A stretch of DNA of 64,000 nucleotides. Origin: Microglena sp. YARC (lineage: Eukaryota > Chlorophyta > Chlorophyceae > Chlamydomonadales > Chlamydomonadaceae). Each line of letters opens with the position of its first letter. The stretch's first letter is position 1. Shown in pieces: positions 3,376 to 61,867 of the stretch. The position numbers were made by a program, and so were the translations under genes. The notes under the pieces are model-generated. The model was not told where the DNA came from, made no database searches, and worked only from the letters and a program-made list of their open reading frames with translations. The stretch lies in NCBI GenBank assembly GCA_022414725.1, contig CM039463.1, positions 81,045,420 through 81,109,419 of the forward strand. Direction: 5' to 3'.

Positions 3376-3524
3376 TCAAAAGGTGGTGGCTTTCTTTTTC
3401 TTGCCACTCTTGGATAATTCTTCTGCCGCTGCGGCTTCGCTCTGCTGCGCCTTTCGCTTCATCTTGTTCACCATGGCTTTCATCTCCATCTGTCGCGTCG
3501 CGGCATCTTTATCAACACATTGCG
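3376..3524 (-). CDS. ESF1: ESF1 exon 17, C-terminus (aa 878-926)
   Basis: Encodes MKAMVNKMKRKAQQ, an Ala/Glu run and a final SGKKKKATTF before TGA. The basic tail fits a nuclear/nucleolar localisation signal. Acceptor CCCCAG. Confidence 0.88.
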
Positions 3525-4559: not shown

Positions 4560-7500
4560 TGGGCTTCATGTTACCCAACAATCCTAAAATCAGGCTTGTG
4601 ACGCAACTTTTGCCTCAGAACTGGACATACAAAAACTGGCTAGCCAAGGAGAGACATCCTTTCATTCCAAAAATCCTTACATTCCGAAAAACAGAACCTC
4701 TTTGGACCGCCTACCAAATCGCAAACTGGATACCAACCTCGAAAAACACCAAATCCCTGATTGCTACCATAAGACCCTCTTTCTGAAACGAAAAAATCTC
4801 ACCTTTATCAACAATAGTTGTCACGGCAGCACTCTCTTTAGCTGGCTTCTCGCCAGCTTCCTTGACCAGCTGTTGCTGCACCTTGGCACGCTTCTTTGAA
4901 ATCTTCTTCATCAATACTTCGGAGTCCTTGTTCTTGGCAAACCTGTAAAGCAGTTCATTTGTAGAAAATGGGTTTGCTTTGTTTGTTTGTTTGCTGTGTT
5001 GGTTGGTTGGTTGGTTGGTTGGTTGGTTGATTTGTTGATTGATTGGTTTATTCATTGGTTGGTTGGTATATATTTTTTCCCGTTTGTTTGATCTAGTTTG
5101 ATCCAGTTTGATCTAGTTTGATCTAGTTTGATCCAGTTTGATCCAGTTTGATCTAGTTTGATCTAGCTTGATCCAGTTTGATCCAGTTTGATCGAGTTTG
5201 ATCTAGTTCGATCCAGTTTGATCCAGTTTGATCAAGTTTGATCCAGTTTGATCCGATTTGATCTAGTTTGATCCAGTTTGATCCACTTTGATCTAGTTTG
5301 ATCCAGATGGATCCAGTTTGATCCAGTTTGATCCTTTGTTTGTTAGTTAGTTTGTTTCATTGTTCTGTTTATTTGTTGGTTAGTCTGATGATGGGTTGGG
5401 ACATAGGTGGCTAGATTTATTGACCCTAAAAGCAATGGGTTGGCACGTACTCGGCTAGATTTGTTGACCCTAAAAGGAATAGGTTGGCACGTAGGTGGCT
5501 AGATTTATTGACCCTAAAATCAACCCCCAAAGGCTCTAACATAGCACCCCCATTACACCTAGGTGCATAATTTAGCACTTAAATACAACATGCTATAATG
5601 TTACATGCTTGTTTAGCACTTTAATGCTACATGCTTATTTAGCATGTAAATGCATCAAGTAGCTCTTGAAGATGCTTGTTGCATTCAAACTTGTAGCACC
5701 AACTTGTAGCCCTACTTGTAGCAGCTTCAAGCAGGTAATTGTTTTTTAAAAATGAAAGTGGGTTTATTCTAGCCTTATGGTTCTAAGCCTCCTCCAGGGA
5801 CAGCGTTTTATTGCTTTTTGTAGCTTTTATAGCCTTACATAGCTTTTTAGGGCCATTTAGGGTACATTTTTATAGCGAGAATTTTGCCACCACGGGGACA
5901 AAATCAGCGATCGCTATATAAAGCGGAAATAAAAAGCCCTGCCTCCAAGAAAACCCTGCGCACCTGGGGTCGGTGGGGTCGAGGGCGAAGTCAGATGACC
6001 TGAACATGTCACCAAAGCGTGGGTCCTCCAAGTTCACTTCAAAGCCTTCAGCCGGCGCCTCCCCCTCAACTCCTGCCGTAGTCCCAGCCAGAGCAGCCTG
6101 GGCCCGAATGTCTTCGTCATCACTGCCCTCATATGCTGCTCTCCTCTCGGCTTTCTTCAGCTCCCTCTTCTCCTTCTTCGTCAGTTTACGCCCCAAGTCC
6201 CCCCCTGCCGCCCCCCCGTCCTCAGCCCCCATGGTGGGCAGTACGAAGAGCAGCGGCCCCCCCACCCCGGGACACATCCCGTAAGGCTGCGTCATCCATC
6301 AATAGAAGCTCCAGCTCGGCTTGCTTCATCTTATCTTCGAGAGCCTTCTGCTTAGCCTCTGCCTTGCTCAAAGCGACCTTGTCTGTTTCATCTTTACCCT
6401 TGCCCTTGCCTCGCTTCCCACCCGCATCCTCCTGCTCAGAGTCAGCCTCGCTGTCGACCGCTGCGAAGGCATCAAAGTCATCATCCGCATCCTGTGATGG
6501 ACACGTCAAGCAAATTTGAAAATTTAAGAAAAAAATAGTATGATGGGCTTTGTTTTGGTGTGGAATGGCTTGGGGAAGGTGAGGTGGGGTGGGGTGGGGT
6601 GGGGTGGTTTGGCTTGGCTTGGGTTGCGTTGGGTTGGTTGGTTTGTTTTGGGGTGGGTTTGGTTTGGTTTGGTGTGGCTTGGGGAAGGTCCCCTTGCCCT
6701 TGCCTTGCTTCCCACCCGTATCCTCCTGCTCTGAGTCAGCCTCGCTGTCGACTGCTGCAAAGGCATGAAAGTCATCATCCGCATCCTGCAATGGGCATGT
6801 GAAGCAGATTTTAAAATTTAAGAAAAAACAGTATTATGGGCTTTGTTTTGGTGTGGAGTGGCTTGGGGAAGGTGAGGTGGGTTGGGGTGGGAGGGTTTGG
6901 CTTGGTTGGGTTAGGCTGGGATTGGTTTGGTGTGGCACAGGCATCAAAGTCATAATCCGCATCCTGCGATGGACACGTCAAGCAGAATGGGCATGATAAG
7001 CATATTTGGAAATCTAAGGGTAAACAGTATGACAGGGTTTGTTTTGTTTTGGTGTGGAGTGGCTTGGGAAAGGTGAGGTGGGGTGGGTGGGGTGGGATGG
7101 TTTGGCTTGCGTTGCGTTGGTTTGGTTTGGCCTGGGTTGGGCTGGGTTTGGTTTGGTTTGGTGTGGGTTGGGAAAGGTGATGTAGGGTTGGGCGGGAGGA
7201 TGGTTTGGCTTGGTTGCGTTGGTTGGTTGGGCTGGGTTTGGTGTGGCTTGGGGAAGGTCCCCTTGCCCTTGCCTCGTATCCACCTGCTCAGAGTCAGCCT
7301 CGCTGCCAACCGCTGCAAAGGCCCAGGTCAACTCAATCACTAACAGATAGCCAAGCAACAGGTACAGCAATATCTGCCGGTTAAGAGATGCCTTCAATTT
7401 TTTTTTTGAAATTTAAACATCCAAGAATTGTCACAATGACCTCTAAGGACGTGCCCAGTGGGATTAAGGGAACCGGATCGTAAGTATGCGCTGCTCGAGC

Positions 7501-10500
7501 CAACATCGCATCAAGATACCAGTTACCGTGCCGGTCGACGACCCTCCGGACGGGCCCAAGCGCACTTAAGATGGTTTGAACCCCGCACCTGCCTCGATAT
7601 TTCCCCTTTGCTCTGCCACTGAGCCATTCGGTTCTGGTCAGTGATTAGAGATGCTTTTTCATAAGTAAACGGGCTGCCCCCCCTCAACCTCACGGCTCGT
7701 AACAAGGCAACCTATTTATTTACATAAGTAAACGGGCTGCCCCCCTCAACCTCACGGCTCGTAACAAGGCAACCTATTTATTTACATTAGTAAACGGGCC
7801 GCCCCCCTCAACCTCACGCCTCATATCAAGGTGTACTCTTTATTAACACAAGTAAAAGGGCTGCCCCCCTCAACCTCACACCTCATATCAAGGTGTACTC
7901 TTTATTGACACAAGTAAACGGGCTGCCACCCTCAACCTCACGCCTCGGAACAAGGCGAACTATTTATTAACACAAGTAAACGGGCCGCCCCTTAACCTCA
8001 CGCCTCGGAACAAGGCGTACTATTTATTTACACAAGTAAACGGGCTGCCCTCCTCAACCTCACGGCTCGTAACAAGACAAACTATTTATTTACACAAGTA
8101 AACGGGCCGCCCCCCTCAACCTCACACCTCGTAACAAGACATACTCTTTATTCACATAAGTAAACGGGCTGCACCCCTCAACCTCACGCCTTGTAACAAG
8201 GCGTACTATTTATTTATTTACACAAGTGAAACCTTGTAGATGGGGCCAACGCAATCACTAACAGATAGCTTAGAGAGGTCTGCACAGAGCCCACTTTTCA
8301 AAATCTTTGATTTTTTTGGCGTCCACCCAACGAGCACGTTGTCGCTTTAATTTTGATTTTAATTCAAATATAAAAATCACGTCTTGTTTGGACATACCTT
8401 GAATAAGGGATTTGTATTTGAATTCAAATTTACAAATCATGCCTGGTTGTAACATACTCCACCTACCTTGAAGAAGGGATTTGTATTTGAATTCAAATTT
8501 ACAAATCATGCCTGGTTGTAACATACTCCACCTACCTTGAAGAAGGGATTTGTATTTGAATTCAAATTTACAAATCATGCCTGGTTGTAACATACTCCAC
8601 CTACCTTGAAGAAGGGATTTGTATTTGAATTACAAATTAAAAATCATGCCTGGTTGTAACATACTCCACCTACCTTGAAGAAGGGATCGTCGAAGGCACC
8701 CTCGTCCCCTAAATCTGCAGCAGCCCCTGCCTTCTTGGGAACATGATCAATCAGCTCCTCTCCGAAGTCCTCACTGTCAAATAAGATGGGATGGGGTGGG
8801 ATGGGGTGAGGTGGGATGGGATGGAGTGAAGTGGGATGGGATGAGATGGGGTGGCAGTGGCATTTGTTTCATGAAGAGTTTGGGGATCAAAATTTGAATT
8901 CAAAATCTGCAGCAGCCCCCGCCTTCTTGGGTAAATGGTCCACCAGCTGTCAACTGTCAAATGAGATGGGGTGGAGTGAGGTGGGATGGGGTGGGGTGAG
9001 GTGGGATGGGATGGGTGGGACGGGATGGGATGGGATATCCCCTACCAACACCCTCCCCTTGCACCCACCTGCCCGATGACAAGCTATCAACTTGGCGCCC
9101 CTTTTTCAGAGCCTTCTTGGCCTCTTCTCCCTGCATCCTCTCCCCCTCCACCCCCAATTTCTAACCTGTGCCCCTACCAACCACCCTCCCCTTGCACCCA
9201 CCTTCCTGATGATGAGCTATCAACTTGGCGCCCCTTTTTCAGAGCCTTCTTGGCCTCCCTCCCTGCATACTCTCCCCCCTTCACCACCACTTTCTAACCC
9301 TGTACCTCTGCCAACCACCCGCCCCTTGCACCCACCTTCTGGATGACGAGCTATCAGCTTGGCGCCCCTTTTTCAGAGCCCTCTTGGCCTCCCCCCCTCC
9401 CCCCTCCACCCCCACTTTCTAACCCTGCACCCTACCAACCACCCGCCCCCTGCACCCTCCACCCCACTTTCTAACCCTGTACCCCTACCAAACACTTGCC
9501 CCCTTGCACCCACCTTCCTGATGGCGAGCTATCAACTTTGCGCCCCTAAATCAGAGCCTTCTTGGCCTCCCCCCTCCCCCCTCCACCCCCACTTTTAACC
9601 CTGTGCCCCTACTACCACCCGCCCCTTGCACCCACCTGCCCGATGACAAGCTATCAACTTTGCGCCCCCTTTTCAGAGCCTTCCTTGGCTTCCCCCCTCC
9701 CCCTCCTCCCCACTTTCTCACCCTGTACCCCTACCAAACACTTACCCCCTGCACCCTCCACCCCCACTTTCTAACCCTGCACCCCTACCAACCACACTCC
9801 CCTTGCACCCACCTCCCCGATGACGAGCTATCAACTTGACGTCCCTTTTTGGGGCCTTCTTGGCCCCTCTCGCTGCACCCTTTTCCCCCTCCACCCCCAC
9901 TTTCTAACCCTGCACCCATACCAAATACCCTACCCTTGCACGGCCTTCACCCCTCCCTGCTTCCCCCTGCACCCTATTCCCTCTCCACCACCATTTTAAA
10001 CCCTGTCCCCCTACCAAACACCCTCCCTTTGCACCCACCTTCCTGATGACGAGCTATCAACTTGACGCCCCTTCTTCAGAGCCTTCTTGGCCTTCTTGCG
10101 CTCTTTCTTCTTCCTCAAGTAACTGTCCCATACAGTCTCACCACGTCGTTCCTGCTCCTCACGCTTCTTCGCTATCATCTTCTCGCCTAGTGACTCCAGG
10201 CCTGCAAGGGATAAGGAGGATGAAGATAAGGAAGAGGATAAGGATGAGGAGGATGAGGATGAGGAGGATGAGGATGAGGGGGATGAGGATGAGGGAGGGC
10301 AGTCACAGGTGTTTTGTTTTGTTTTGTTCCATTCTGTAACGAAACTTATACTTGCTCCTCACGCTTCTTCGCTATCATCTTCTCGCCTAGTGACTCCAGG
10401 CCTGGAAGGGATGAGGATGAGGATGCGGAAGGGCAGTCAGAGGTGTTTTGGTTTGGTTTGAAATGTACTACGTAACTAAACTCATACTTGCTCCTCCCGC

Positions 10501-34936: not shown

Positions 34937-34969
<33 letters not shown>

Positions 34970-36434: not shown

Positions 36435-36476
<42 letters not shown>

Positions 36477-39034: not shown

Positions 39035-39112
<78 letters not shown>

Positions 39113-40593: not shown

Positions 40594-40630
<37 letters not shown>

Positions 40631-41196: not shown

Positions 41197-41248
<52 letters not shown>

Positions 41249-41566
41249 ATCCTTTACAAGAACAAGCTGAAGAATGTGTTGGAAGCTAAACAGGTTCTCA
41301 GTGGTGCTGATGAGGCTGACCTGGCGTGAGTGCAACGCATCCTGTGGCTTGACTAATGAGGTGGCGGAGAAGTTGGGTGGGAGGACAGGGGGGGAGGGGG
41401 GGGGGGGGGCAGGGCGCATCCTTTACAAGAACAAGCCGAAGAATGTGTTGGAAGCTAAACAGGTTCTCAGTGGTGTTGATGAGGCTGACCTGGCGCGAGT
41501 GCAACGCATCCTGTGCTTGACTAATGAGGTGGCACAGAAGGTGGGTGGGAGGACAGGGGGGGGGAG

Positions 41567-41619
<53 letters not shown>

Positions 41620-43119
41620 ACATCCTTTACAAGAACAAGCTAAAGAATGTGTTGGAAGCTAAGCAAGTTTCTCAGTGACGCTGATGAGGCCACGACCTGG
41701 TGGGAGTGCGATGCATCCTTTGCTTGACTTATGAGGTGGCGCAGAGGGGGGTGGAAGGACAAAGGGAGGGGGGGGGGGGGGGGGGGGATACACAATTTAA
41801 CAACTATTTAAGTCAGCACGGTATTAAAAATTAAAGCCTTTGGTATACTGAATTACTCACCATCTTCTGCGATCAGGGCCAGCTAGATGTTGCGGGGAAG
41901 AACTTGGGTGCTGTGATCATTGCCATGTATGACCTAGGCATCAAAGCTGTACATTCCTTCCCTAAACTCTAAAACCTTAAGTTAACTGAACAATACAACA
42001 TTGTTTGTTTGTTTTTTTGTTTCACCACCAGTGCACACCCCCACCCCCTATAACCCTATGCACCATCTTCTGCAATCAGGGCCAGCTAGATGTTGCGGGG
42101 AAGAAGTTGGCTGCTGTGATCAGTGCCATCTACAACCTGGGCATCACGGCCGTGTATTCCTTCAAAAAACGCTAAAACCTTTGTTTAACTGAACAATACA
42201 CTATCTTCTGCAATCAGGGCCAGCTAGATGTTGCGGGGAAGAAGTTGGGTGCTGCGATCAGTGCCATCTATGCCCTAAGCTTCACGGCTGTGTTTTCCTT
42301 CCCTGAACTCTAAAACTTTAAGTAAACTGAACGGTACACCATTCTCTGCAATCAGGGCCAGCTAGATGTTGCGGGGAAGAAGTTGGGTGCTGTGATCAGT
42401 GCCATGTATGACCTAGGCATCAAAGCTGTGTTTTCCTTCCCCAAACTCTAAAACCTTAAGTTAACTGAACAATACACCATTGTCTGTTTGTTTGTTTCAC
42501 CACCAGTGCACACCCCCACCCCCTATAACCCAATGCACCATCTTCTGCAATCAGGGCCAGCTAGATGTTGCGGGGAAGAAGTTGGGTGCTGTGATCAGTG
42601 CCATCTACAACCTGGGCATCACGGCCGTACATTCCTTCCGAAAGCGCGAAAACCTTAGTAAAAACTGAATAATACACCATGTTCTGCAATCAGGGCCAGC
42701 TAGATGTTGCGTGGAAGAAGTTGGGTGCTGTGATCAGTGCCATCTACAACCTGGGCATCACGGCCGTACATTCCTTCCGAAAGCGCGAAAACCTTAGTAA
42801 AAACTGAATAATACACCATGTTCTGCAATCAGGGCCAGCTAGATGTTGCGGGGAAGAAGTTGGGTGCTGTGATCAGTGCCATCTACGACCTGGGCATCAA
42901 CGTAGTTCCCGAGGGAGAGCTTGTCCGATTAGACAAGACCATGAAGGACCTGCGACTGGACAAGGACGTGGCTGTGATGGTGGTAAAGAAGGTCACCATT
43001 GAGAAGTTCCGCAGCTACATTAAGGAGGTGCAGAAGGCGGCGGAGGCCCAGGACCAGAATCAATGCGCCCAAGTGATGAAGAATTTGGTTCAGTTTAACG
43101 CATTGGTAAGTGCCCCCCC

Positions 43120-43150
<31 letters not shown>

Positions 43151-43423
43151 GCACACACACACGTACACGTACATACGCACACACTCATGCACACAAATAC
43201 GCACACATGCACATACAAACATACTTGCATACACTCATGCACACATACACACACATACACATACACCCTCAAGACACGGATGTGGCTGTGGTGGTGGTGA
43301 AGAAGGTCGCTATCGAGAAGTTCAGCAGCTACATTTAGGAGGTGCAGAAGGCGGCGGAGGCCCAGGACCAGAATCAATGTGCCCAAGTGATGAAGAATTT
43401 GGTTCAGTTTAACGCATTGGTAA

Positions 43424-43459
<36 letters not shown>

Positions 43460-55400: not shown

Positions 55401-56082
55401 TTGGTTACATGGGAATATACATCTGTGGGTGGGTAGGGGTAGGGGGGGGGGGTATGTTACAGTCTAGTAGAGTAGCCAAATGGTATCAAGGGGCTTTACC
55501 ACCAGTGGTATGGGGGGGGGTGGGGGGGGTTGTATGTATGTTCCAGTCTAGTTGTAGCCAAATGGTATCAAGGGACTTGACCACCAGGGGTATGATGGTT
55601 GGGGTGGGGGGGTATCTATGTTACAGTCTAGGAGTAGCCCAATAAGAAGAAGTACCTGGAGTCCATGCAAGCGCAGATGGGTCTGACTAAGGGGGCTTCT
55701 GAGAAGGTGTGCGTTGGTTATTTAAGCGTATTGGTTATATGGGAATATACATGTCTGGGTGGGAAGGAAGGGGGATCCAATAGTAGTCACATGGTATCAA
55801 GGTACTTGACCAGTGGTGGTGGTGGTGGGTGGTTGGGGGGGGAGGGGGGGGGTATGTATGTTACAGTCTAGGAGAAGCCCAAGAAGAAGAAGTACCTGGA
55901 GTCCATGCAAGCGCAGATGGGTCTGACTAAGGAAACTTCTGAGAAGGTGCGCGATGGTTTTGTGATAAAATACACGTGTGGGTGGGTTACGTGAGCGTAT
56001 TGGTTTCGTGATAATATACACATGTGGGTGGGCGTCTAATGCAACACGGCAAGGAAACCCAACCCAATGTACCTTCCCCCCC

Positions 56083-56128
<46 letters not shown>

Positions 56129-59100
56129 CACAAACAACTAGACTAATCCCCTCCCCAATTCCTGTGTGTGTTCCCTCAGGTGTTGAAGGAGGTGCGCATC
56201 TAGGTTTACGGTACCTCAAGCCCTGTGATGGAGGATGGCTCTTGCTTGAAGCTGGAGCGTATAATGCAACACCGCGAGGGAAACCCAACCCAACTTCCCA
56301 TCCACACACACACGCACACACAGACGAACAACTAGACCAATCCCCTCCCCAATTCCTGTGTGTGTTCCCTCAGGTGTTGAAGGAGGTGCGCATTGAGGTT
56401 TACGGTACCTCAAGCCCTGTGATGGAGGATGGCTCTAGCTGGAACTTGGCGCGTATAATGCAACACCGCGCAGAGGGCAAGACCCTAGAAGGCGTGGTGG
56501 AGGAGGTGACCAGGCGAAACCTGTACAGGCGGGAGCTGGGTCAGCAAGTGACTGATGGTGAGTGTGGTTAACAAGCACGTGCAAAACAAACCTGTAAGGC
56601 TTATGAGGCAAAGAGGGTGGATATCTTCGGGATAGCTCCCAGGTCAGGTTAATGTAGGTAGATCTCATTTGCAAATCACATCCCATCCACCCACTGCTTA
56701 TCATGTAGGTAGATCTCATTTGCAAATCACATCCCATCCACCCACTGCTTATCAAAACCTGTACCGGCGTGAGCTTGGAAAGCAAGTGAGTAGGGGACTG
56801 ATGGTGAGTGTGGTCTACCAGCACATGCACAACAAACTATCAGGCCTATGAGGCAAGCATGCCCCATCCAAAGCATGCCCCATCCACCCACAGTGTATCA
56901 AAACATGTACCGGCGTGAGCTAGGACAGCAAGTGACTGATGGTGAGTGTGGTCTACCAGCACATGCACAACAAACTATCAGGCCTATGAGGCAAGCATGC
57001 CCCATCCAAAGCATGCCCCATCCACCCACAGTGTATCAAAACCTGTAAAGGCGTGAGCTAGGACAGCAAAATCCAAAGCATGCCCCATCCAAAGCCTGCC
57101 CCATCCACCCACAAGGCAAGCATGCCCCATCCAAGGCAAGCATGCCCCACCCACCCACAGTGTATCAAAACCTGTACAGGCGTGAGCTAGGGCAGCAAGT
57201 GAGTGATGGTGAGTGTTTTTCTGTCATGTATGATGCCGTCAGATTTTATCACCACTTAGCAAGAAATTGAAATTGTTGCATCTGTGTAATACATTCACTC
57301 ACAGGATGTTAAGTAAAGGACACCATAGCGTAAGCCGAAGCTAGAAGTAGTCACCGTTACCAGTTAGCAAGTCATTACTATCCCAGTAAGCCTGGAAAGT
57401 ACCTAATTTTTTGAAAATGTCGAATTTTTCCCTCGCCCGCCCCCCCCCCGCGGCCCCAAACTTTGGAGGACCATTACTTTTTTTCTACTGGGCCAAATTA
57501 AGAAATTCAGCCAAATTCTTCATTCTCTCTCTTTAATATCCACTAAGTTGGAGGATTGTGTCATTTTTGTTAGAAGTTGCCCCCCCCTCTGCCAGTTAAC
57601 ATAATAATTTGTGCGCCTTCAGCATGTAGCCTGTTTGTTGCGACTGATGGTGAGTGTGATTCATAATCATTATCACAACAAGACTATCAGGCCTATGAGG
57701 CAAAGAGGGTGGATATCCTCCGGATAGCATATAAGACATATAATTGTTTATATTTGTTGCTGTTCATATTTGGTAACAAAATTGTAAATGAAATTTTAAA
57801 TCAGCTCATACTATTCAACCCTCCCCCCTCGATGTTTGTTCTTCAGGCACCGGCGAGGCAGATTCTGAGTTCCTATTGACCTGACTTCTTTTTATATTTG
57901 TTGACATGTAATTGTTTGTATTTGTTGTTGTTTGTATTTTTTGACATATAATTGTTTATATTTGTTGGCATAAAATGTAAATTAAATTTGAAATCAGCTT
58001 AAACTATTCAACCCTCCCTCCCATGTATTTGCCATTCAGGAACCGGCGAGGCAGATTTAGAGTTCCTTTTATATTTGTCGACATATAATTGTTTATATTT
58101 GTTGGCATAAAATTGCTTCTATTTGGTGCTGTTTATGTGTGTTGATATATAATTGTTTATATTTGTTGATATATAATTGTTTATATTTGTTGATATATAA
58201 TTGTTTATATTTGTTGAAATATTATTGTAACTGCAATGAAAATCAGCTCAAACTTCTCACACCTCCCCCCTCGATGTTTGCACTTCAGGAACTGGCGAAG
58301 CAGATTCTGAGTTCCTTTTGACCAAGCTTCCAGAGGCCTTGGAGTTGGACAAGAAGAAGGTGAGAAGCTTTTTCTATAAATAAATAAAAGTCTGTGTTAA
58401 GAGGCGTGAGGTTGAGTGGGCCAGTCCGGGAGAACTACTTACAGAACTGCTGGATACTCAGATATTTTTTTGGGGGGGGGGGGGGGGGGGGGGGGGGGTC
58501 AGGACTACAAGGGTGCTTTGGTGACCAAAACACGCACACACCAGCACACACATACAACTATACAAGTGAACACGTTGGCTCCTGTTACAGGTACAGCCTC
58601 GACTGGCCGTACTTTGACGTGTGATAAATTAGTTGTTTAGCAACAACCCACCACAACCACCACAACCACTGCAGTAGCACTACTGCACGGACACACACAC
58701 ACACCTCCCTCGCACACGCTCACACGCACAAACACACACAGAATTTGTGGTTTGAGCTTGTCTTCGGTCAACTCTGGCCTGTCTATGACAGTGTAATGAA
58801 ATAGAAACACACACCCATGCACACACACACCCTATACCCAAAACCAAAACCACAATCTACACCCACAACCTGCACCCATAACCTACACCCACAACCCAGA
58901 ACTACACACACAACCAACAACCCACCCCCTACACACACAACCTACACCCATACCCACAGATTGAGCGTGTGATTAAGGAGATGGTCGGCTCTCGCCGACG
59001 AACCCTGTTGGTCCAAGCTGTCAGCCAGGTTCGCCAGAAGAGGCCCGTTGATGCGGTAAGTCCATAAGTGTTTTTGTGTACATACACACTCACAAATTAA

Positions 59101-61867
59101 CACAAATTCACGCACACAAACTCGCACGAACAAACATGTACACACACAGGCTGTAGCCAGGTTCGTCAGAAGAGGCCCACTGATGCGGTAAGGCCGTAAG
59201 TGCTGCAAAGCAGTAGGCACGGTAATTACCTTAATATGACCTCACAATAACCATGCTCTTGCCATACACTTGCCATACACTTACCATACACATACCATAC
59301 ACTTACCATACACATACCATACACACACCATACACTTACCATACACATACCATACACTAACAATACACTTACCATAAACTTACCCAAGGTCGAATATTGG
59401 ATGGATACTCAGAAGCAAGTTGCAATAAAATATCTTCTTTCATTCACCACATTGGAAGCGGCACCCATGAGCGAATGCACCAAGTTTAGGGTCTAAACCC
59501 TAAAACCCTAAACCCTGGCATTAATCGCAGTGCCTCACCCATGAGCGAACAGTACAACACAACTCGCGTCTGCGTGTGTCCCTGTGCACATGGTGTCTCT
59601 CAACAACTTGATAAATTCAACAACTACACCCCTTGGCAATCACATAGCTGTACTGCAGTACAGCACCTCACGCCTGCATGTGTCCCTGTGCACAAGGGTG
59701 TCCCACAACAACTTGATCAGTGTAACGGCTGGACCCTTTGGCTAACACAAGGCAGAACTGCAGTACAACACAACTCACGCCTGCATGTTTCCCTGTGCAC
59801 ATGGGTGTCCCTCAGTGCTTGGATCAATTCGACAACCAGACCTCTTGGCGATCACATAGCTGTACTGTAGTACAACACAACTCACGTCTGCGTGTTTCCC
59901 TGTGCACATGGGTGTCCCTCAGTACCTGGGTCAGTGTATCAACTGGACCCTTTGGTCGTCACATAGCAGTACTGCAGTACACCACAACTCACGTCTGTCT
60001 GTGTCCCTGTGCACATGGTGTCCCTCAACAACTTGGCCAATTCATCGACTACACCCCTTGGCGATCACATAGCAGTGCTGCTGTACAACACACCTCATGC
60101 CTGCTTGTATTTCTGTGCAGATGGTTTCCCTGAACAAGTTGATCAATTAAACGACTAGACCCCTTGGCCATTACATAGCAGTACTGCAGTACAACACAAC
60201 TCACGTCTGCTTGTGTTCCTGTGCAGATGGTGTCCCCCAACAACTTGATAATTTCAACAACAACACCCCTTTGGTCGTCACAAAGCAGTACTGCAGTACA
60301 ACCCAGCTCACGTCTGTTTGTGCTCCTGTGCAGATGGTGTCCCTCAACAGCTAGGTCAATTCAACAACTGGACCCTTTGGTCGTAACATGGCAGTACAAC
60401 ACAACTCCCGTCTGCTTGTGTTCCTGTGCAGATGGTGTCCCTCAACAACTTGATAATTTCAACAACTACACCCCTTTGGCCATCACATAGCAGTACTGCA
60501 GTACAACACAACTCTCGCCTTTTTGTGTCCCTGTGCACATGGTGTCCCTCAACAACTTGATCAATTCAACAACTAGACTCCTTGGCGATCACAAAGCAGT
60601 ACTGCAGTACAACACACCTCACGCCCGCATGTCTCCCTGTGCACATGGGTGTCCCTCAGTGCCTGGATAAGTGTAACGACTGGACCCTTTGGCCGTTACA
60701 TAGCAGTACTGCAGTACAACACAACTCACGCCTGCTTGTGTTTCTGTGCAGATGGTGTCCCTCAACAACTTGATCAGCTGCAACAAGGTGATGCCAGAGA
60801 ATGGCCCCATGCCATGGAACGAGCAGCAGGAGATTAACGATGTGTTCCAGGCCTACTGTGGAAAGGTGGGTTCTCGACTAAATTTATATTAATCAGCGGG
60901 GTGGGGTGGGTGGGGGTTGGAGCTGGTCTAGGCACCCTGCCATGGAATGAGCAGCAGGAGATAAACGATGTGTTCCAGGCCTACTGTGGAAAGGTGGGTT
61001 CTCAATTAAGCTTATATCAATCAGCGGGGGGTTTGGGGGACAGCCCGTCTCACTGGGGTCGCACAGAGTCACTCAATTTGCGACGCGTTGCACGCAAAAC
61101 AAACTGATCAAATTACTGTTATGAATCTCAGCCCCTCCAAAAGTTGCAACAAAGTGATGCCAGAGAATGGCACGCCATGCTATAGAACGAGCAGCAGGAG
61201 ATTAACGATGTGTTCCAGGTCTACTGCGGAATGTTGGGTTCTCGATTAAACTTACTAGGGCTGAGCCCGTCGTACTGAAGGCAGGCCTACTGTGGAAATG
61301 TGGGTTCTCAATTAAACTTGTATTAATCAGCGGGTCAGCGGGTCAGAAGGCAGCCCGTCGCACTGGGGTCACACAGAGTCGCTCAATTTGCAACGCATTG
61401 CACGCGAAACAAACTGGTCAAATTACTGTAATGGATCTCAGCCCCTCTTAAACATATGGTCCTGACCTTGATTGTTTGAGGTTGGGCAAGTCCTTTTAGC
61501 CAAAGTGGCCACCCCTGAATTGTAACATCCATGCATCACATACAATTGCATGGACAAAACTAAACATGTTGAGCAGTGCAACGTGAGCCTGACAGAGATG
61601 AGTGGCTCCTGAGGTGCTCCCGTAGTATACCGGTAATACAGACATACATACAAACATACTTACTTGAATGCATACACACATACATATATACTTGCATACA
61701 TACTTAACACACCCACGCATATCCCTTTGCCCACATAGGTGACAGACACCAACAAGCAGTGCACTCTGCAACAACTCCTTGGCTTGAGCGATGATGAGGC
61801 GAATGAGCTGAGAAACGCCAGTCAAACAGAGGAGGAGCTTCGGGACGAGAACGAGGTTTTCTTCTAG
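27893..61867 (+). CDS. TIC110: TIC110: chloroplast inner-envelope import/scaffold protein, 20 exons, 1056 aa
   Basis: Tic110 sits in the inner chloroplast envelope. Its large helical stromal domain binds incoming transit peptides and stromal chaperones. Exons: 27893-28039, 29855-30035, 31565-31853, 33904-34054, 35105-35289, 36129-36268, 37328-37587, 39609-39755, 41013-41174, 42833-43105, 44844-44979, 51973-52070, 52577-52703, 53619-53743, 55100-55255, 56374-56557, 58289-58359, 58960-59055, 60752-60865, 61739-61867. They sum to 3171 nt with consistent phase and GT-AG ends throughout. Layout: transit peptide (1-37, VQA before the likely cleavage site), two N-terminal membrane helices (about 82-104 and 117-136), then an all-helical domain. 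Plant-like motifs include AFQRLVYVSSIMFGD, LVVTPVLDKVKG (plant: LVVTEMVADIKG), MVSLNNLISCNKVMP and QQLLGLSDDEA. The ATG context is CCACCATGC. Length is close to the roughly 1000 aa of land-plant Tic110. Confidence 0.94.
28040..29260. other. TIC110 intron 1, low-repeat part
   Basis: 28040-28790 shows no repeat or exon. Two copies of a 120-bp C-rich unit (CACACCTGATATACCCACCT) lie at about 28990-29090 and 29095-29200. Confidence 0.7.
29270..29854 (+). repeat. Copies of TIC110 exon 2 5' end with acceptor
   Basis: Two full 5' copies start at about 29490 and 29717 (each CCACAG|CCACCTTTCAAGATGGAGG and about 80 nt of exon), plus a partial older one near 29240. CACACCAACCC tracts separate them. Confidence 0.94.
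29855..30035 (+). CDS. TIC110: TIC110 exon 2, first membrane helix (aa 50-110)
   Basis: KMEVLEEGNVKPFARPLPLE, then hydrophobic IPLMVFYPALLAAVGVFGF (first membrane helix). Acceptor CCACAG, donor CTG|GTACGT. Both ends are copied in the flanking introns. Confidence 0.88.
30036..30450 (+). repeat. Five copies of TIC110 exon 2 3' end with donor
   Basis: Period about 60-90 bp. Each carries GTGGGAGTTTTTGGGTTCAC…GGCCGGAAAAAGCATGCCTG|GTA(C/T)GTTGAAGG. The last copy loses the donor. Confidence 0.93.
30672..30699. repeat. Poly-G run
   Basis: Run of 28 G in TIC110 intron 2. Confidence 0.95.
30780..31060. repeat. CATGATAAAGTTTATCCACT repeats
   Basis: Four to five units of about 60 bp (CATGGTCATGATAAAGTT…ATCCACT…) in TIC110 intron 2. 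Confidence 0.85.
31125..31564 (+). repeat. Two upstream copies of TIC110 exon 3 5' end
   Basis: Copies at about 31170-31330 and 31340-31500 repeat CACAACCTGATCTACAAA…CACCGACACCAAGGACATCG. The first has its acceptor AG changed to TG (TTCTG|TTTACACC); the second keeps CAG but changes ADTDTKG. Period about 175 bp. Confidence 0.94.
31565..31853 (+). CDS. TIC110: TIC110 exon 3, second membrane helix (aa 110-206)
   Basis: IAAYGTAALLAAGAAAVAVQ is the second Ala/Gly-rich membrane helix; then IVDLYNQIVDLGDPTTLTSD and YGINLQKEELDGLQRVYGEY begin the helical domain. Acceptor TTCAG|TTGAC, donor GAT|GTGCGT. The third and only fully in-frame of three 5' copies was chosen. Confidence 0.9.
31854..32410 (+). 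repeat. Three downstream copies of TIC110 exon 3 3' end with donor
   Basis: Copies at about 31908-32040, 32080-32205 and 32230-32360 repeat GGGCTCTAAATATGGCATCA … CACGCAGCTGAT|GTGCGT; each donor is followed by a G-rich run. Period about 150-170 bp. Confidence 0.94.
32790..33600 (+). repeat. Five upstream copies of TIC110 exon 4 5' end
   Basis: Near 32808, 33028, 33237, 33463 and 33570: GCAGGGGTGATGAGCCTCAG…AAGCTGGTGG…TTTCATG. Each of the first four also carries a copy of the GGGCTG(CC)…CTCAACCTCACGCCT element. Similarity to the real exon decays irregularly; the most distal has GTGGGG in place of the CAG acceptor. Confidence 0.88.
33590..33900. repeat. TGATTGATTTATTGATTTACATTTGATCC repeats
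   Basis: About nine units of about 32 bp (ACTGATTGATTTATTG + ATTTACATTTGATCCT) directly upstream of exon 4. Confidence 0.92.
33904..34054 (+). CDS. TIC110: TIC110 exon 4 (aa 206-256)
   Basis: GDEPEKLIAFMTALGLTDEQ, then AAPMHLEIGAKFYRDGFESK. Equivalent to the plant segment with ALGIDEPDAAAMHMEIG. Acceptor ATGCAG, donor AGG|GTGGGT. Confidence 0.92.
34490..35104 (+). repeat. Three copies of TIC110 exon 5 5' end; (GT)n(GA)n higher-order units
   Basis: Copies with CTGCAGGCCTTTCAGCGCC at 34523, 34603 and 34670, period about 70-80 bp. From 34700 to 35060 four units of about 90 bp alternate TGTGTGTG, GAGAGAGA and GGGCATTCATGCATGTTATG. Confidence 0.93.
35105..35289 (+). CDS. TIC110: TIC110 exon 5 (aa 257-318)
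   Basis: AFQRLVYVSSIMFGDQRASV, then LTPWGQNFKLTDAQLFVARR. Highly similar to plant AFMRLVYVSALVFGD...PW...KVTDAQ. Acceptor CTGCAG; ends in phase 2. Confidence 0.95.
35425..35640. repeat. Exon 5 3'-end copy and palindromic MITE-like copy
   Basis: 35433-35490 repeats TTTTCGAGTCACAGCTGGAA…GCTGATAG|GTAGG (exon 5 end with donor). From 35491 the ATATCATATGATG element (GGGAACGGCA start) follows, fused precisely to the exon copy. Confidence 0.85.
35641..36128 (+). repeat. Two upstream copies of TIC110 exon 6 5' end; CAACCACTCACT tract
   Basis: Copies near 35645 (CTGCAGGAGACCCAGGCACA) and 35825 (CTGCAGGAGGCCCAGGTGCA). CTCAACCACCCATTTAGTCA repeats at 36015-36110. Confidence 0.85.
36129..36268 (+). CDS. 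TIC110: TIC110 exon 6 (aa 318-365)
   Basis: AFLQELREKQTQLKLMDESA then EEVAKECSMAHVEVMLRRAM. The first copy is used: later copies have a stop (CTGTGA in the copy at 36300) or lack the acceptor. Confidence 0.9.
36269..36640 (+). repeat. Two downstream copies of TIC110 exon 6 3' end with donor; poly-G
   Basis: Copies at 36298-36390 and 36508-36620 (GCAGCTGAAACTGGTGGATG…AACAG|GTGAATGG). The first contains CTGTGA, a stop in the exon frame. A run of about 37 G lies at 36439-36475. Confidence 0.94.
36705..37327 (+). repeat. Five upstream copies of TIC110 exon 7 5' end
   Basis: Starts near 36720, 36831, 36953, 37053 and 37170 (GGCAAGTCCCGAGATGCTGC), each followed by CCGGTGGGGCCACACACAC and CTCACTCACTCCACCACCAC. 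The acceptor is destroyed in the two most distal copies (ACCGGG and CTGGCAAG). Confidence 0.93.
37328..37587 (+). CDS. TIC110: TIC110 exon 7 (aa 365-451)
   Basis: KSRDAAGACAVLKEVLNYSR, LSALAGDESLIPGLGPVNIH, ending EFTEELVADTKDMQ. Plant counterpart contains ARGVGPISLIGDE. Acceptor CGCCAG, donor CAG|GTCAGT; that donor end recurs seven times with an intact donor in the next 1.2 kb. Confidence 0.92.
37588..38930 (+). repeat. Eight downstream copies of TIC110 exon 7 3' end with donor
   Basis: Copies near 37721, 37880, 38055, 38215, 38388, 38548, 38716 and 38881, spaced alternately about 160 and 173 bp. Two types alternate: TEELVADTKDMQ and TEALVVDTKDMQ, so a dimer of about 333 bp has been reiterated. 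All keep CAG|GTCAGTG except the last (CAG|GGGAGTG). Confidence 0.96.
39035..39608. repeat. (CT)n tract, exon 8 5'-end copy, C/CA-rich tract
   Basis: CT run 39036-39108. At 39167-39190 CCCCTACAGGCTTTCATGTG is a short copy of the exon 8 start. C-rich and ACAC tracts follow to the exon. Confidence 0.88.
39609..39755 (+). CDS. TIC110: TIC110 exon 8 (aa 452-500)
   Basis: AIMCIPARDASYLQDEVSAG, then LYKELLRAEVLSKRIDEAPA. Helical repeat segment; phase 0 at both ends; acceptor TCCCAG, donor AAG|GTGAGA. Confidence 0.92.
39756..40380 (+). repeat. Three downstream copies of TIC110 exon 8 3' end with donor
   Basis: Copies at 39880-39960, 40092-40166 and 40340-40370 (GCCTTGTGTCAGAAG|GTGAG). First two with GGTGGTGGTG tracts, period about 205 bp. 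Confidence 0.95.
40590..41012 (+). repeat. Three upstream copies of TIC110 exon 9 5' end; (CA)n
   Basis: Copies at 40675, 40791 and 40900 (TTCTCCCCTGAGGCAGCCAT), period about 110 bp, each followed by TGTACACCATGACCCTAACC. (CA)n at 40595-40629. Confidence 0.94.
41013..41174 (+). CDS. TIC110: TIC110 exon 9 (aa 501-554)
   Basis: VRFSPEAAMELHKELYKNKL, then NVLEAKQVLSDADEADLARV and RRILCLTNEVAQK; plant pattern HFDAQKAGAIHEEIYRQKL...LLRLRVMLC. Acceptor GCGAAG, donor AAG|GTGGGT. Confidence 0.93.
41175..41790 (+). repeat. Three downstream copies of TIC110 exon 9 3' end with donor; poly-G
   Basis: Copies at 41250-41375, 41422-41540 and 41625-41745 (CTTTACAAGAACAAGCTGAA … GAG|GTGGC…AAG|GTGGGTGG). Each is preceded by a G run (41211-41246, 41396-41410, 41581-41617; also 41769-41788). 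The copies carry frame-breaking indels. Confidence 0.95.
41870..42832 (+). repeat. Six upstream copies of TIC110 exon 10 5' end with acceptor
   Basis: Starts at 41877, 42080, 42218, 42355, 42555 and 42694 (real exon 42833); period about 138 bp or about 200 bp where a GTTTGTTT/CACCACCAGTGCACACC insert is present. Each keeps ATCAG|GGCCAGCTAGATGTTGC and about 65 nt of exon, then switches to intron at ATCA(C/A). Confidence 0.96.
42833..43105 (+). CDS. TIC110: TIC110 exon 10 (aa 555-645)
   Basis: GQLDVAGKKLGAVISAIYDL, LDKDVAVMVVKKVTIEKFRS, ending MKNLVQFNAL; plant pattern ELKKMIAFNTLVV. The seventh copy of the 5' half is used; it is the only one that continues into the rest of the exon. Confidence 0.93.
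43106..43815 (+). repeat. Two downstream copies of TIC110 exon 10 3' end with donor; CA tracts
   Basis: Copies at 43275-43421 and 43672-43811 (AAGAATTTGGTTCAGTTTAA…TTG|GTAAGT), both with TAG at the ACATTTAG position in the exon frame. C runs and ACACAC tracts with CATACACTCATGCACACA between. Confidence 0.95.
43830..44000. mobile_element. Palindromic ATCATATGATATC MITE-like copy
   Basis: Shares TATATAAATGGCAACTGTAG, CCTAGTCAGACT and ATGATATCATAT with 35486-35635 (there in the opposite orientation). Ends in a C run. Confidence 0.65.
44000..44843 (+). repeat. Four upstream copies of TIC110 exon 11 5' end with acceptor
   Basis: Starts at 44260, 44463, 44590 and 44717 (real exon 44844); the last three are exactly 127 bp apart. 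Each retains CTCAG|GT and about 75 nt of exon up to ATGCAGGCACA. ACACAC tracts before them. Confidence 0.96.
44844..44979 (+). CDS. TIC110: TIC110 exon 11 (aa 646-691)
   Basis: VVTPVLDKVKGTDAAKKELA, then an Ala/Lys/Glu-rich tail. The fifth copy is used; earlier copies stop matching after ILMQ. Donor TCA-G|GTGAGT opens the 7-kb intron 11. Confidence 0.92.
44980..45180 (+). repeat. GGCAAGGTTGAGGGGTG repeats and exon 11 3'-end copy
   Basis: 40-45-bp G-rich units; at 45125-45152 GCTGCCAAGAAGGAGGGCAA repeats the exon 11 end without a donor (TCAGAGG). Confidence 0.88.
45250..46165. other. TIC110 intron 11, dispersed elements
   Basis: Reversed family A fragment 45255-45325; SINE-like body 45385-45475 (shared with 1033-1100); element 45735-45825 shared with 545-635; poly-G 46058-46079. 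No exon seen. Confidence 0.65.
46180..51930. repeat. 31-bp minisatellite (about 4.5 kb core) with 190-bp higher-order extension
   Basis: Core unit of 31 bp built from ACTGATGCGCCC, TCACCACATAATG and ACAGAA, roughly 145 units between 46440 and 50950. The left 700 bp has many indels and truncated units, the middle is nearly uniform, with isolated breaks near 48110, 48470 and 50570-50870. From 50954 to 51660 a 190-bp composite (six minisatellite units plus CATCGACTCTACTTGTTC…TTTAAATTCAAAAG) is repeated four times exactly 190 bp apart. A diverged form of that spacer is at 46250-46375. Final units use ACTGATGTACCC. Confidence 0.96.
51973..52070 (+). CDS. TIC110: TIC110 exon 12 (aa 691-723)
   Basis: DDKTAEAGGEAVPGVATEAE then KASTLKSMQSAMK. 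Acidic/Ala-rich linker in the poorly conserved middle of the protein. Acceptor GTCCAG, donor AAG|GTGTGC. Confidence 0.85.
52071..52576 (+). repeat. Copy of TIC110 exon 12 3' end; CACACTCCACCCAATAC repeats
   Basis: 52138-52172 repeats GAAGAGCATGCAGAGTGCTA then TGAAG|GTGTGC. From 52295 to 52570 CACTCCACCCAATACACACA-type units run up to the exon 13 acceptor. Confidence 0.92.
52577..52703 (+). CDS. TIC110: TIC110 exon 13 (aa 724-766)
   Basis: ASRGEYTEEEKKAQKEISLK, then DAMEPDMKDKLYKQFLMITM; plant: EITLKDDLPDRDRIDLYKTYLLYC. No junction copies were seen for this exon. Confidence 0.9.
52704..53618 (+). repeat. Three upstream copies of TIC110 exon 14 5' end; (ACAT)n arrays
   Basis: Copies at about 52872 (ATGCAGACGAGACCAAGGAT), 53068 (ATGTAGGTGAGGCCAAGGAT) and 53252 (CTGCAGGTGAAAACAATGAT). 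(CATA)n tracts with embedded CCCCTGTACTGCACAT cores derive from family A tails (53285-53600). Confidence 0.92.
53619..53743 (+). CDS. TIC110: TIC110 exon 14 (aa 766-807)
   Basis: GETKDLPLGGMETAKKKKKE, then LQQWSEILGMSQ. Acceptor ATGCAG, donor CAG|GTATGT. The donor leads directly into an ATGT microsatellite. Confidence 0.88.
53744..54145. repeat. (ATGT)n with family A core fragments, then intact reversed family A
   Basis: GTCCAGGGGTGGGTATGTAT-type units 53745-53990; complete reversed family A copy 54040-54145 ending near AACCCCAAACAATTG. Confidence 0.85.
54295..55099 (+). repeat. Five upstream copies of TIC110 exon 15 5' end with acceptor
   Basis: Copies starting near 54304, 54470, 54625, 54754 and 54905 (AGATGGAGGTAGCATCGGCC…CAGCAAGCCA), period about 130-165 bp, followed by AACAAAACAAAAC tracts. 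The Tyr codon region differs and all stop matching after CAAGCCA. Confidence 0.95.
55100..55255 (+). CDS. TIC110: TIC110 exon 15 (aa 808-859)
   Basis: MEVASAHSTLAEDAYKQQAK, then KYLESMQAQMGLTKETSEK; plant: IVNIHVGLAEQAFRQQAEVI...LQKQVGLP. Acceptor CCACAG, donor AAG|GTGCGC. Confidence 0.93.
55256..55960 (+). repeat. Two downstream copies of TIC110 exon 15 3' end with donor
   Basis: Copies at 55645-55710 and 55885-55950 (AAGTACCTGGAGTCCATGCA…GAGAAG|GTG(T/C)GCG). The donor-side intron (GTGATAATATACACGTGTGG) is itself repeated three times at 55270-55420. Confidence 0.95.
55961..56373 (+). repeat. One upstream copy of TIC110 exon 16 5' end; CA tract
   Basis: Copy at 56180-56280 (CCCTCAG|GTGTTGAAGGAGGTGCGCAT then TAG, a stop) extends 100 nt into the exon to the TAATGCAACACCG region. 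(CA)n at 56085-56125. Confidence 0.94.
56374..56557 (+). CDS. TIC110: TIC110 exon 16 (aa 860-921)
   Basis: VLKEVRIEVYGTSSPVMEDG, then LARIMQHRAEGKTLEGVVEE and RNLYRRELGQQVTDG; plant pattern REKLFKKTVSDIFSSGTGE. Acceptor CCTCAG, donor ATG|GTGAGT. Confidence 0.92.
56558..57215 (+). repeat. Four to five downstream copies of TIC110 exon 16 3' end with donor
   Basis: Copies at 56755-56815, 56902-56950, 57041-57070, 57170-57215 (AACCTGTACCGGCGTGAGCT…GTGACTGATG|GTGAGTGT), spaced with CATGCCCCATCCACCCACA; a last fragment at 57640-57660. Confidence 0.93.
57216..57720. other. TIC110 intron 16, unremarkable part
   Basis: No exon or clear repeat apart from the short exon-end fragment near 57640-57735. 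Confidence 0.5.
57721..58288 (+). repeat. Two upstream copies of TIC110 exon 17 5' end; TTTATATTTGTTG repeats
   Basis: Copies at 57846 (TTCAGGCACCGGCGAGGCAG) and 58037 (TTCAGGAACCGGCGAGGCAG); period about 190-250 bp. Between them ATATAATTGTTTATATTTG units. Confidence 0.94.
58289..58359 (+). CDS. TIC110: TIC110 exon 17 (aa 921-944)
   Basis: TGEADSEFLLTKLPEALELD then KKK; plant TGEFDETEVYQTIPSDLSID. Acceptor CTTCAG, donor AAG|GTGAGA. Confidence 0.92.
58360..58959. repeat. TIC110 intron 17: poly-G, CA and ACCCACAACC tracts
   Basis: Reversed GCGTGAGGTTGAG… element 58378-58440; G run of about 27 at 58472-58498; ACACACAC tracts 58690-58740; CCTACACCCACAACC repeats 58845-58955. Confidence 0.85.
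58960..59055 (+). CDS. TIC110: TIC110 exon 18 (aa 945-976)
   Basis: IERVIKEMVGSRRRTLLVQA then VSQVRQKRPVDA; plant LSNSLVQAVALLRQRNSKG. Acceptor CCACAG, donor GCG|GTAAGT. Confidence 0.92.
59056..59400 (+). repeat. Copy of TIC110 exon 18 3' end; CATACACTTACCATACACAT repeats
   Basis: 59147-59195 repeats GTAGCCAGGTTCGTCAGAAG…ACTGATGCG|GTAAG. CATACACTTAC/CATACACATAC units at 59260-59390. Confidence 0.93.
59484..59516. repeat. Telomere-like motif, copy 2
   Basis: GTTTAGGGTCTAAACCC then TAAAACCCTAAACCCT, one visible difference from 12093-12125. Confidence 0.85.
59540..60751 (+). repeat. Eleven upstream copies of TIC110 exon 19 5' end
   Basis: GTGCA(C/G)ATGG boundary at 59584, 59689, 59795, 59902, 60009, 60115, 60221, 60329, 60426, 60533 and 60639 (real 60746): period 105-108 bp except one of 97. 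Each has about 25 nt of exon (ATGGTGTCCCTCAACAACTT) and intron AGCAGTACTGCAGTACAACA. Acceptor AG is AC in seven copies and AG in four (60115-60426). Confidence 0.96.
60752..60865 (+). CDS. TIC110: TIC110 exon 19 (aa 977-1014)
   Basis: MVSLNNLISCNKVMPENGPM then PWNEQQEINDVFQAYCGK; plant VLSLNDLLACDKAVP...W.V..EL.D.Y..Y. Acceptor GTGCAG, donor AAG|GTGGGT. Confidence 0.94.
60866..61320 (+). repeat. Three downstream copies of TIC110 exon 19 3' end
   Basis: Copies at 60932-60993 (donor kept), 61142-61235 (donor changed to GAATGTTGGG) and 61282-61310 (GAAATGTGGG). GCACTGGGGTC/GTCACTCAATTTGC blocks repeat with them. Confidence 0.94.
61458..61738. repeat. Family A copy and ACAT tract before exon 20
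   Basis: 61458-61535 carries GGTTGGGCAAGTCCTTTTAG; CATACATACA-type tract 61640-61705. Confidence 0.7.
61739..61867 (+). CDS. TIC110: TIC110 exon 20, C-terminus (aa 1015-1056)
   Basis: CTLQQLLGLSDDEANELRNA then TEEELRDENEVFF and TAG; plant LQYLLGIDDSTATALREM...NFVF. The family's typical C-terminal Val/Phe ending is present. Confidence 0.94.
   Translation: MTDTNKQCTLQQLLGLSDDEANELRNASQTEEELRDENEVFF

What the first reader, a model, noticed from the sequence alone, without database searches (positions are those of the whole stretch)
3376..61867. Exon-intron junctions of two unrelated neighbouring genes are serially duplicated into their introns
Seen directly: 17 of 20 TIC110 exons and about 10 of 17 ESF1 exons have partial copies next to them. 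The copies follow a rule. Exon 5' ends plus acceptor are repeated upstream; exon 3' ends plus donor are repeated downstream. Each unit holds only one splice junction, so it cannot become a complete cassette exon. Array sizes run from 1 to 11 for most exons, and about 25 for ESF1 exon 4. Inference: introns grow by tandem duplication whose window straddles the exon edge, and splicing keeps the copy contiguous with the exon body. I know of no described system with this density and polarity.
Basis: partly seen in the sequence, partly recalled or inferred. Interest (0 to 1): 0.9.

Follow-up and report, generated by a model that had tools for sequence, protein, structure and literature searches.

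The report
Exon edges caught in tandem duplications
In this green alga short stretches of DNA are copied side by side throughout the introns, and the copying runs over exon edges as readily as over intron sequence, so real splice sites sit beside near-identical decoys that splicing apparently has to ignore.

Summary
I rebuilt both genes (TIC110, 20 exons; ESF1, 17 exons). 17 of 20 and 10 of 17 exons have edge copies in neighbouring introns, up to 11 and 25 per edge. All 150 same-strand edge copies lie on the predicted side; none carries both edges. Three further genes agree: 209 of 209 in five genes.

The interpretation needs changing. Polarity follows from geometry: a tandem duplication over an exon edge that leaves the exon body intact must look like this. 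Edges are not preferred: with simple repeats masked, 57 of 110 edges carry copies, 55.5 expected from random intronic points. Copies drift nearly neutrally; exons are constrained. Simulated blind duplication gives similar substitution rates, but too few edges with copies relative to introns.

What stays unusual is the density, and that decoys keep strong splice sites: 36 of 98 acceptor and 60 of 112 donor decoys score at least as well as the real site. Splicing would have to choose by position, as in exon definition; no RNA was available to show it.

The parts
3376..27481 (-). ESF1 gene, 17 exons, 933 aa (pre-rRNA processing)
   Evidence: spliced alignment and homologs
27893..61867 (+). TIC110 gene, 20 exons, 1056 aa (chloroplast inner envelope translocon)
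   Evidence: spliced alignment and homologs
29202..29947 (+). TIC110 exon 2 acceptor-edge copies (3), approximate span
29977..30426 (+). TIC110 exon 2 donor-edge copies (4), approximate span
31182..31656 (+). TIC110 exon 3 acceptor-edge copies (2), approximate span
31731..32391 (+). TIC110 exon 3 donor-edge copies (3), approximate span
36163..36657 (+). TIC110 exon 6 donor-edge copies (2), approximate span
37545..38959 (+). TIC110 exon 7 donor-edge copies (8), approximate span
39681..40410 (+). TIC110 exon 8 donor-edge copies (3, spacing 205, 96-99% identical), approximate span
41055..41786 (+). TIC110 exon 9 donor-edge copies (3), approximate span
41837..42900 (+). TIC110 exon 10 acceptor-edge copies (6), approximate span
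42959..43849 (+). TIC110 exon 10 donor-edge copies (2), approximate span
44220..44923 (+). TIC110 exon 11 acceptor-edge copies (4), approximate span
54265..55158 (+). TIC110 exon 15 acceptor-edge copies (4), approximate span
56517..57248 (+). TIC110 exon 16 donor-edge copies (3), approximate span
59550..60785 (+). TIC110 exon 19 acceptor-edge copies (11, spacing 98-107), approximate span
60776..61339 (+). TIC110 exon 19 donor-edge copies (3), approximate span
20261..22679 (-). ESF1 exon 4 donor-edge copies (25), approximate span
15201..15929 (-). ESF1 exon 9 acceptor-edge copies (5, spacing 123), approximate span
13463..13879 (-). ESF1 exon 10 donor-edge copies (2), approximate span
12918..13303 (-). 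ESF1 exon 11 acceptor-edge copies (2), approximate span
11179..12802 (-). ESF1 exon 11 donor-edge copies (7), approximate span
10153..10722 (-). ESF1 exon 12 acceptor-edge copies (3), approximate span
9028..10093 (-). ESF1 exon 12 donor-edge copies (6), approximate span
8426..8687 (-). ESF1 exon 13 donor-edge copies (3, spacing 69), approximate span
6397..7003 (-). ESF1 exon 14 acceptor-edge copies (2), approximate span
7656..8216. example of an array wholly inside an intron (period 62, 9 copies), the commoner class; the rows above give 24 of the 42 edges with copies found

Best explanation
This genome undergoes frequent local tandem duplication of short segments (spacings here 44-538 bp, median 138.5), blind to gene structure. 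Duplications inside exons or over whole exons are removed by selection. Those in introns, and those straddling one exon edge, survive because the copy contiguous with the exon body still gives the normal protein. Serial events and unequal exchange then make arrays. The extra copies are intron; they drift nearly neutrally, yet for a long time keep splice sites about as strong as the real one. Splicing therefore has to take the innermost acceptor and the innermost donor, the pair closest across the exon (exon definition). Shown: copies, polarity, drift of copies, constraint on exons, no overall edge preference. Inferred: removal by selection, use of the innermost sites, the exon-definition reading, and the DNA mechanism (slippage, template switching or repair of staggered nicks; none tested).
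For: 1. Edge copies in all five genes counted: same-strand edge matches 98 acceptor upstream and 111 donor downstream, none on the wrong side, none with both edges.
2. Edges are not preferred overall: masked test 57 of 110 edges against 55.5 expected from random points in the same introns, odds ratio 1.08. Density mostly follows the gene: gcvP 2 of 16 edges, control 16 of 100; ileS 9 of 14, control 61 of 100.
3. Copies drift, exons do less: exon-copy mismatches by codon position 6.9, 6.7, 13.8%; copy-copy 11.3, 12.5, 15.6% (ungapped, copies at least 70% identical to the exon).
4. Spacings ignore the reading frame: 45, 50, 53 of 148 in the three classes modulo 3.
5. Core GT/AG of decoys mismatch at 26 of 420 sites (6.2%, five genes), like codon positions 1+2 (322 of 4720, 6.8%, window genes; p = 0.69); no extra decay.
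6. Eight simulations of blind duplication with selection on exons: 582 of 583 edge matches with right-side polarity (largely built in), codon positions 8.0, 8.6, 13.2%, core 7.1%, intron side 14.4%; observed core 6.2%, intron side 12.8-14.1%.
7. Decoy strength: 36 of 98 acceptor and 60 of 112 donor decoys score at least as well as the real site (22 of the 60 come from ESF1 exon 4); at 21 of 32 and 18 of 32 edges some decoy does.
8. Units look local: of 40 genome matches to the TIC110 protein, 32 lie in this locus; the other 8 are 35-62% identical paralog pieces (35 of 522 candidates scored, coding parts only).
Against: No RNA: use of the innermost sites rests on protein continuity only. Young copies (>= 90% identity) are in excess at edges: 43 against 31.4 expected, z 2.3. 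Simulations reproduce only part of that, and give fewer edges with copies than intronic points (196 of 304 against 489 of 640; 281 of 456 against 717 of 960), while the genome shows them about equal, so a residual edge excess of about 20-25% is unexplained. CHLH2 alone shows excess at edges (8 of 12 against 28 of 100; masked 6 of 12 against 22 of 100), and a complexity-filtered form of the first test did too (35 of 70 against 88 of 250). A first single simulation gave 22 of 128 mismatches at decoy cores, well above the eight later runs. Decoys are somewhat weaker on median than real sites (8.2 against 9.0 bits, 8.6 against 10.2). Copy-copy divergence is slightly biased to third positions. The whole-exon deficit is weak evidence (24 edge arrays, 0 whole, about 2 expected). 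A ChlH paralog on C1493 gave wrong-side and two-edge matches, but its exon model was unusable. The one acceptor looked at in the C2 ChlH gene had no copy.
Confidence: 0.83

Rival explanations
1. An edge-directed process: duplication is targeted to exon-intron junctions (for example by transcription, R-loops, nucleosome edges or spliceosome-coupled breaks).
For: Excess of young copies at edges, 43 against 31.4 expected; CHLH2 8 of 12 edges against 28 of 100 random points; simulations fall short of the observed edge-to-intron ratio.
Against: Overall no excess: 57 against 55.5 expected; 84 of 108 longer-period arrays touch no edge; gcvP edges lie slightly below its intron background (2 of 16 against 16 of 100).
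Confidence: 0.1
2. The copies are real alternative exons: units are spliced as extra exons or create new introns, as in the potato RdRp case, so repeated peptides in the predicted protein are genuine.
For: The automatic model P0001 includes such peptides; one potato duplication over an intron-exon boundary became a new intron with RNA support (PMC4974935, abstract and results section read); decoy sites are strong.
Against: Spacings are not multiples of 3; copy-copy mismatches are nearly even over codon positions; the alignment driven by homologous algal proteins alone leaves these peptides out.
Confidence: 0.1
3. Mobile introner-like elements or satellites inserted at exon edges.
For: One intronic array (7656-8216) has 63 matches genome-wide, itself included, so some intronic repeats are dispersed.
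Against: Edge units consist of the local exon and intron itself; off-locus matches to the TIC110 protein are diverged paralog pieces. Direct DNA searches with edge arrays did not complete.
Confidence: 0.03
4. Assembly artefact.
For: Tandem repeats do cause assembly and annotation errors (PMC6868369, abstract read).
Against: Copies differ (71-99% identity to the exon) and divergence follows codon structure; same pattern in four separate places of the genome.
Confidence: 0.02

Closest known systems
[quoted passage not shown] potato RdRp case (PMC4974935)
   Same: A tandem duplication crosses an intron-exon boundary and duplicates acceptor, polypyrimidine tract and exon start.
   Different: One event in one gene, and there the upstream acceptor stayed in use and a cryptic donor made a new intron; here 43 of 70 edges in two genes carry copies, on both exon sides, with the innermost site inferred to be used.
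Satellite DNA (tandem repeats with monomers above 10 bp) and long introns of Chlamydomonas relatives (PMC8226300)
   Same: Tandem arrays are part of the DNA of related algae.
   Different: That paper reports median intron lengths of 198-343 bp (passages read); the introns here have medians of 1356 and 1223 bp, and arrays run into exon edges.
Exon definition with competing splice sites in human (PMC9225289)
   Same: With long flanking introns, sites closest across the exon are favoured (abstract).
   Different: In human the upstream acceptor preference is only reduced under exon definition (section on 3' splice sites read); here intact proteins would need the downstream acceptor past decoys of similar strength.
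Introner elements (recalled, from no call)
   Same: Repetitive sequence at many introns of one genome.
   Different: Here the edge units are derived from their own exon edges; no dispersed family was seen for them.

Membership tests
Tandem (minisatellite-like) repeat arrays | direct head-to-tail local copies | tested here: met
   164 of 166 matches direct; median spacing 138.5
Tandem (minisatellite-like) repeat arrays | unit private to the locus | tested here: inconclusive
   TIC110 protein search: 32 of 40 genome matches in the locus, the rest 35-62% paralogs, but only coding parts were searched and 35 of 522 candidates scored
[quoted passage not shown]
   AG kept in 52 of 64, GT in 74 of 84 copies
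[quoted passage not shown]
   no RNA and no close relative's DNA held
Tandem cassette / mutually exclusive exon duplication | whole exon with both splice sites duplicated | tested here: not met
   0 of 209 edge copies in the five counted genes carry both edges
Tandem cassette / mutually exclusive exon duplication | copies keep coding constraint | tested here: not met
   copy-copy mismatch 11.3, 12.5, 15.6% by codon position, nearly even
Introner elements | dispersed homologous copies at many genes | tested here: inconclusive
   not seen with the TIC110 protein; direct DNA searches with edge arrays did not complete
Exon definition | sites closest across the exon are used | not testable with these tools
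   inferred from intact frames only
Exon definition | long introns flanking short exons | tested here: met
   intron medians 1356 and 1223 bp; internal exon median 162 nt, 51 exons of five genes

The most novel reading that the evidence does not exclude
In this alga exon definition is close to absolute: the spliceosome ignores nearby acceptor and donor sites of similar sequence strength (210 found in five genes alone) and takes the innermost pair. That makes duplicated splice sites selectively neutral, lets tandem duplication enlarge introns from exon edges, and gives a natural genome-scale experiment on splice-site choice by position alone.
Probability: 0.35. Interest if true: 0.75.

Novelty: new variant of a known kind. 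Interest (0 to 1): 0.5.

Why it matters
Splice-site competition is usually studied with built constructs or alternative-splicing databases. Here a genome offers many natural duplications of complete splice sites, on both sides of exons, with strength nearly constant and mainly position varying. It also shows how introns can lengthen from exon edges at no apparent cost, supplies raw material for intron gain, and warns that automatic proteins from such genomes can contain false repeated peptides (TIC110 here: 1330 aa predicted against 1056).

Tried and rejected
Considered and rejected: edge-targeted duplication as main cause; cassette exons; mobile elements; assembly artefact. Selection against decoy splice sites was looked for and not found: decoy cores decay no faster than codon positions 1 and 2.

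The first unmasked control (43 of 70 edges against 151 of 250 intronic points) was replaced by a simple-repeat-masked one, because introns hold many short-period repeats; both give the same answer. With a complexity filter on the first test edges looked enriched (35 of 70 against 88 of 250), but exon sequence biases that filter. Exon interiors gave 14 of 120. Unmasked controls for the other genes: CHLH2 28 of 100, gcvP 13 of 60, ileS 53 of 100.

Dropped before counting: the first two 'exons' of the CHLH2 alignment (spurious); the two edges of a doubtful 40-nt ESF1 intron (exons 14/15) in the masked test, though not; the C2 ChlH gene, of which only one acceptor was looked at (no copy); a second ileS place (C1:14705117), not studied; and the C1493 ChlH paralog, whose model had an internal stop and an exon of 1 nt. 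Its 17 matches were 4 acceptor upstream, 2 donor downstream, 6 with both edges, 2 donor upstream, 1 acceptor downstream, 2 interior.

Led nowhere: Rfam (gathering threshold) and tRNA scans of the window (no hits); comparison with related algae's DNA (none held); species name. The assembly is 568 Mb and by protein similarity lies in or near Chlamydomonadales; PMC11228838 gives 532 Mb for Chlamydomonas ICE-L (passages read), so I name no species.

Paper searches: 9 of 10 used, each showing a capped list. I saw no title or abstract start in those lists reporting exon-edge arrays at this density; that is not a full search of the literature.

Full report
The window lies in a 568 Mb assembly of 2390 contigs and holds two head-to-head genes. 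Homolog searches name them TIC110 and ESF1; the best named hits, apart from proteins of the same genome, are green algae, Chlamydomonadales first. I wrote a spliced protein-to-DNA aligner and aligned profiles of the algal homologs, leaving out the same genome's automatic models. A few edges were corrected by hand, with those automatic models as a guide. TIC110 has 20 exons and ESF1 17, both open over their full length. In these models all introns are GT-AG except ESF1 intron 1 (GC-AG).

Each exon with 60-nt flanks was compared with the sequence on both sides. Of 166 matches with at least 12 nt of exon, 65 carry the acceptor edge and lie upstream, 85 carry the donor edge and lie downstream, 14 direct matches carry no edge, and 2 are inverted. 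None carries both edges, and no direct match is on the wrong side. 17 of 20 TIC110 exons and 10 of 17 ESF1 exons are affected. The largest arrays have 11 and 25 copies.

It is not special to these genes. I took three further genes from the same genome, chosen only as conserved families: a second magnesium chelatase H gene (CHLH2, 7 exons modelled), glycine dehydrogenase (gcvP, 9 exons) and an isoleucyl-tRNA synthetase (ileS, 8 exons). They add 9+7, 5+0 and 19+19 acceptor and donor copies, all on the right side, besides 7 direct matches without an edge. Edges with a copy: 8 of 12, 2 of 16 and 12 of 14. Over five genes, 209 of 209 direct edge copies obey the polarity. Two more ChlH places were seen and not counted: one acceptor of the C2 ChlH gene had no copy, and a C1493 copy could not be modelled.

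Polarity alone does not show a mechanism. A tandem duplication whose unit covers an acceptor necessarily puts the copy upstream of the intact exon, and one covering a donor puts it downstream. The informative question is whether edges are hit more often than other places. With short-period repeats masked, edges carrying a copy against random intronic points were: TIC110 26 of 38 and 139 of 200; ESF1 14 of 30 and 51 of 100; CHLH2 6 of 12 and 22 of 100; gcvP 2 of 16 and 16 of 100; ileS 9 of 14 and 61 of 100. Pooled, 57 observed and 55.5 expected. Overall, edges are neither hot nor protected. Among 108 arrays of period 30 or more, 84 lie wholly in introns, 24 cross one edge and none crosses two. 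Coverage by such arrays ranges from 0 to 0.80 in twelve further 10-kb stretches, some of which overlap CHLH2 or the C2 ChlH gene.

The copies evolve nearly as neutral intron. Exon-copy mismatches are 6.9, 6.7 and 13.8% at codon positions 1, 2 and 3, as expected if the exon changes mainly at silent sites and the copy everywhere. Copy against copy it is 11.3, 12.5 and 15.6%. Spacings fall evenly in the three frame classes (45, 50, 53 of 148). The splice dinucleotides of decoys differ at 26 of 420 positions, as at codon positions 1+2 (322 of 4720; p = 0.69), so there is no sign of selection removing decoys.

A simple model reproduces most of this. I simulated blind tandem duplication with point mutation, rejecting duplications inside or over whole exons, keeping the innermost copy as functional and protecting coding positions (eight runs). 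582 of 583 edge matches had the observed polarity, which is largely built in. Mismatches were 8.0, 8.6, 13.2% by codon position, 7.1% at decoy cores and 14.4% on the intron side; observed are 6.2% at cores and 12.8-14.1% on the intron side. A first single run had given 22 of 128 at cores. The model gives fewer edges with copies than intronic points (196 of 304 against 489 of 640; 281 of 456 against 717 of 960), whereas they are about equal in the genome, and young copies are in excess at edges (43 against 31.4). Slower decay of exon-derived pairs explains part: the share of matches at or above 90% is 0.42 at edges against 0.35 in simulated introns, and 0.75 against 0.58 observed. A modest edge excess remains open.

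The biologically striking point is splice-site choice. Scored with a position weight matrix from the other real sites, 36 of 98 decoy acceptors and 60 of 112 decoy donors (22 of them at ESF1 exon 4) are at least as strong as the real site; at 21 of 32 acceptor edges and 18 of 32 donor edges some decoy is. Median scores are 9.0 and 10.2 for real acceptors and donors, 8.2 and 8.6 for decoys, about -1 for random intronic AG and GT. At most affected edges strength alone cannot single out the real site; position can. Taking the sites closest across the exon is the rule reported for human sites in long introns (PMC9225289, abstract and one results section read), except that human acceptors still lean upstream. 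Intact proteins in this alga would need the opposite for acceptors. I infer this; no RNA was available.

The public automatic model of this gene (P0001) contains repeated peptides that match intronic copies, and a potato duplication over an intron-exon boundary did become a new intron (PMC4974935, abstract and results read). The nearly even codon positions and the frames argue that this is not the rule here.

Verdict: real, strong and present in every gene counted, but explained mainly by blind tandem duplication plus selection. Its value is as a natural experiment on splice-site choice and as a route of intron growth. On checking I lowered confidence from 0.85 to 0.83, since the locality of units was tested on coding parts only.

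Noticed in passing
27481-27893: TIC110 and ESF1 are head to head with 411 bp between start codons. Consecutive or near-consecutive locus names of the orthologs in Edaphochlamys (HYH03_018413/018414) and Volvox africanus (Vafri_13622/13624) suggest the pair is conserved.
   Followed up: partly
27313-25234: ESF1 intron 1 appears to be GC-AG, with GCATGT both at the donor and just after the acceptor.
   Followed up: no
6245-6204: ESF1 exons 14/15 are separated by only 40 nt near poly-G tracts: a very short intron or a sequence indel.
   Followed up: no
27893-61867 and 3376-27481: Introns hold many poly-G and poly-C runs of 10 nt or more (25 in TIC110, 9 in ESF1) but only 1 and 2 poly-A/T runs; such runs might promote the duplications.
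   Followed up: no
7656-8216: This intronic array has 63 matches across the genome, itself included, many at 93-95% over about 59 nt, so it contains a dispersed repeat.
   Followed up: no
44980-51972: TIC110 intron 11 is 6993 bp, far longer than the others.
   Followed up: no
G000:C1:171154965-171164279, C1:140354300, C383:14023: Diverged TIC110 paralog exons (35-62% identity) exist elsewhere in the genome; their surroundings could not be fetched.
   Followed up: partly
L017, L135, L010 (C1493:3589-18500): A ChlH copy whose C2 counterpart has one 3.1 kb exon is broken by repeated exon pieces; its 5' half aligns with many small gaps while its 3' half aligns without gaps and looks constrained. 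Pseudogene, intron-bearing paralog or unpolished contig.
   Followed up: partly
27893-61867: The EukProt protein P0001 for this gene contains stretches derived from intronic copies and lacks genuine exon parts.
   Followed up: yes
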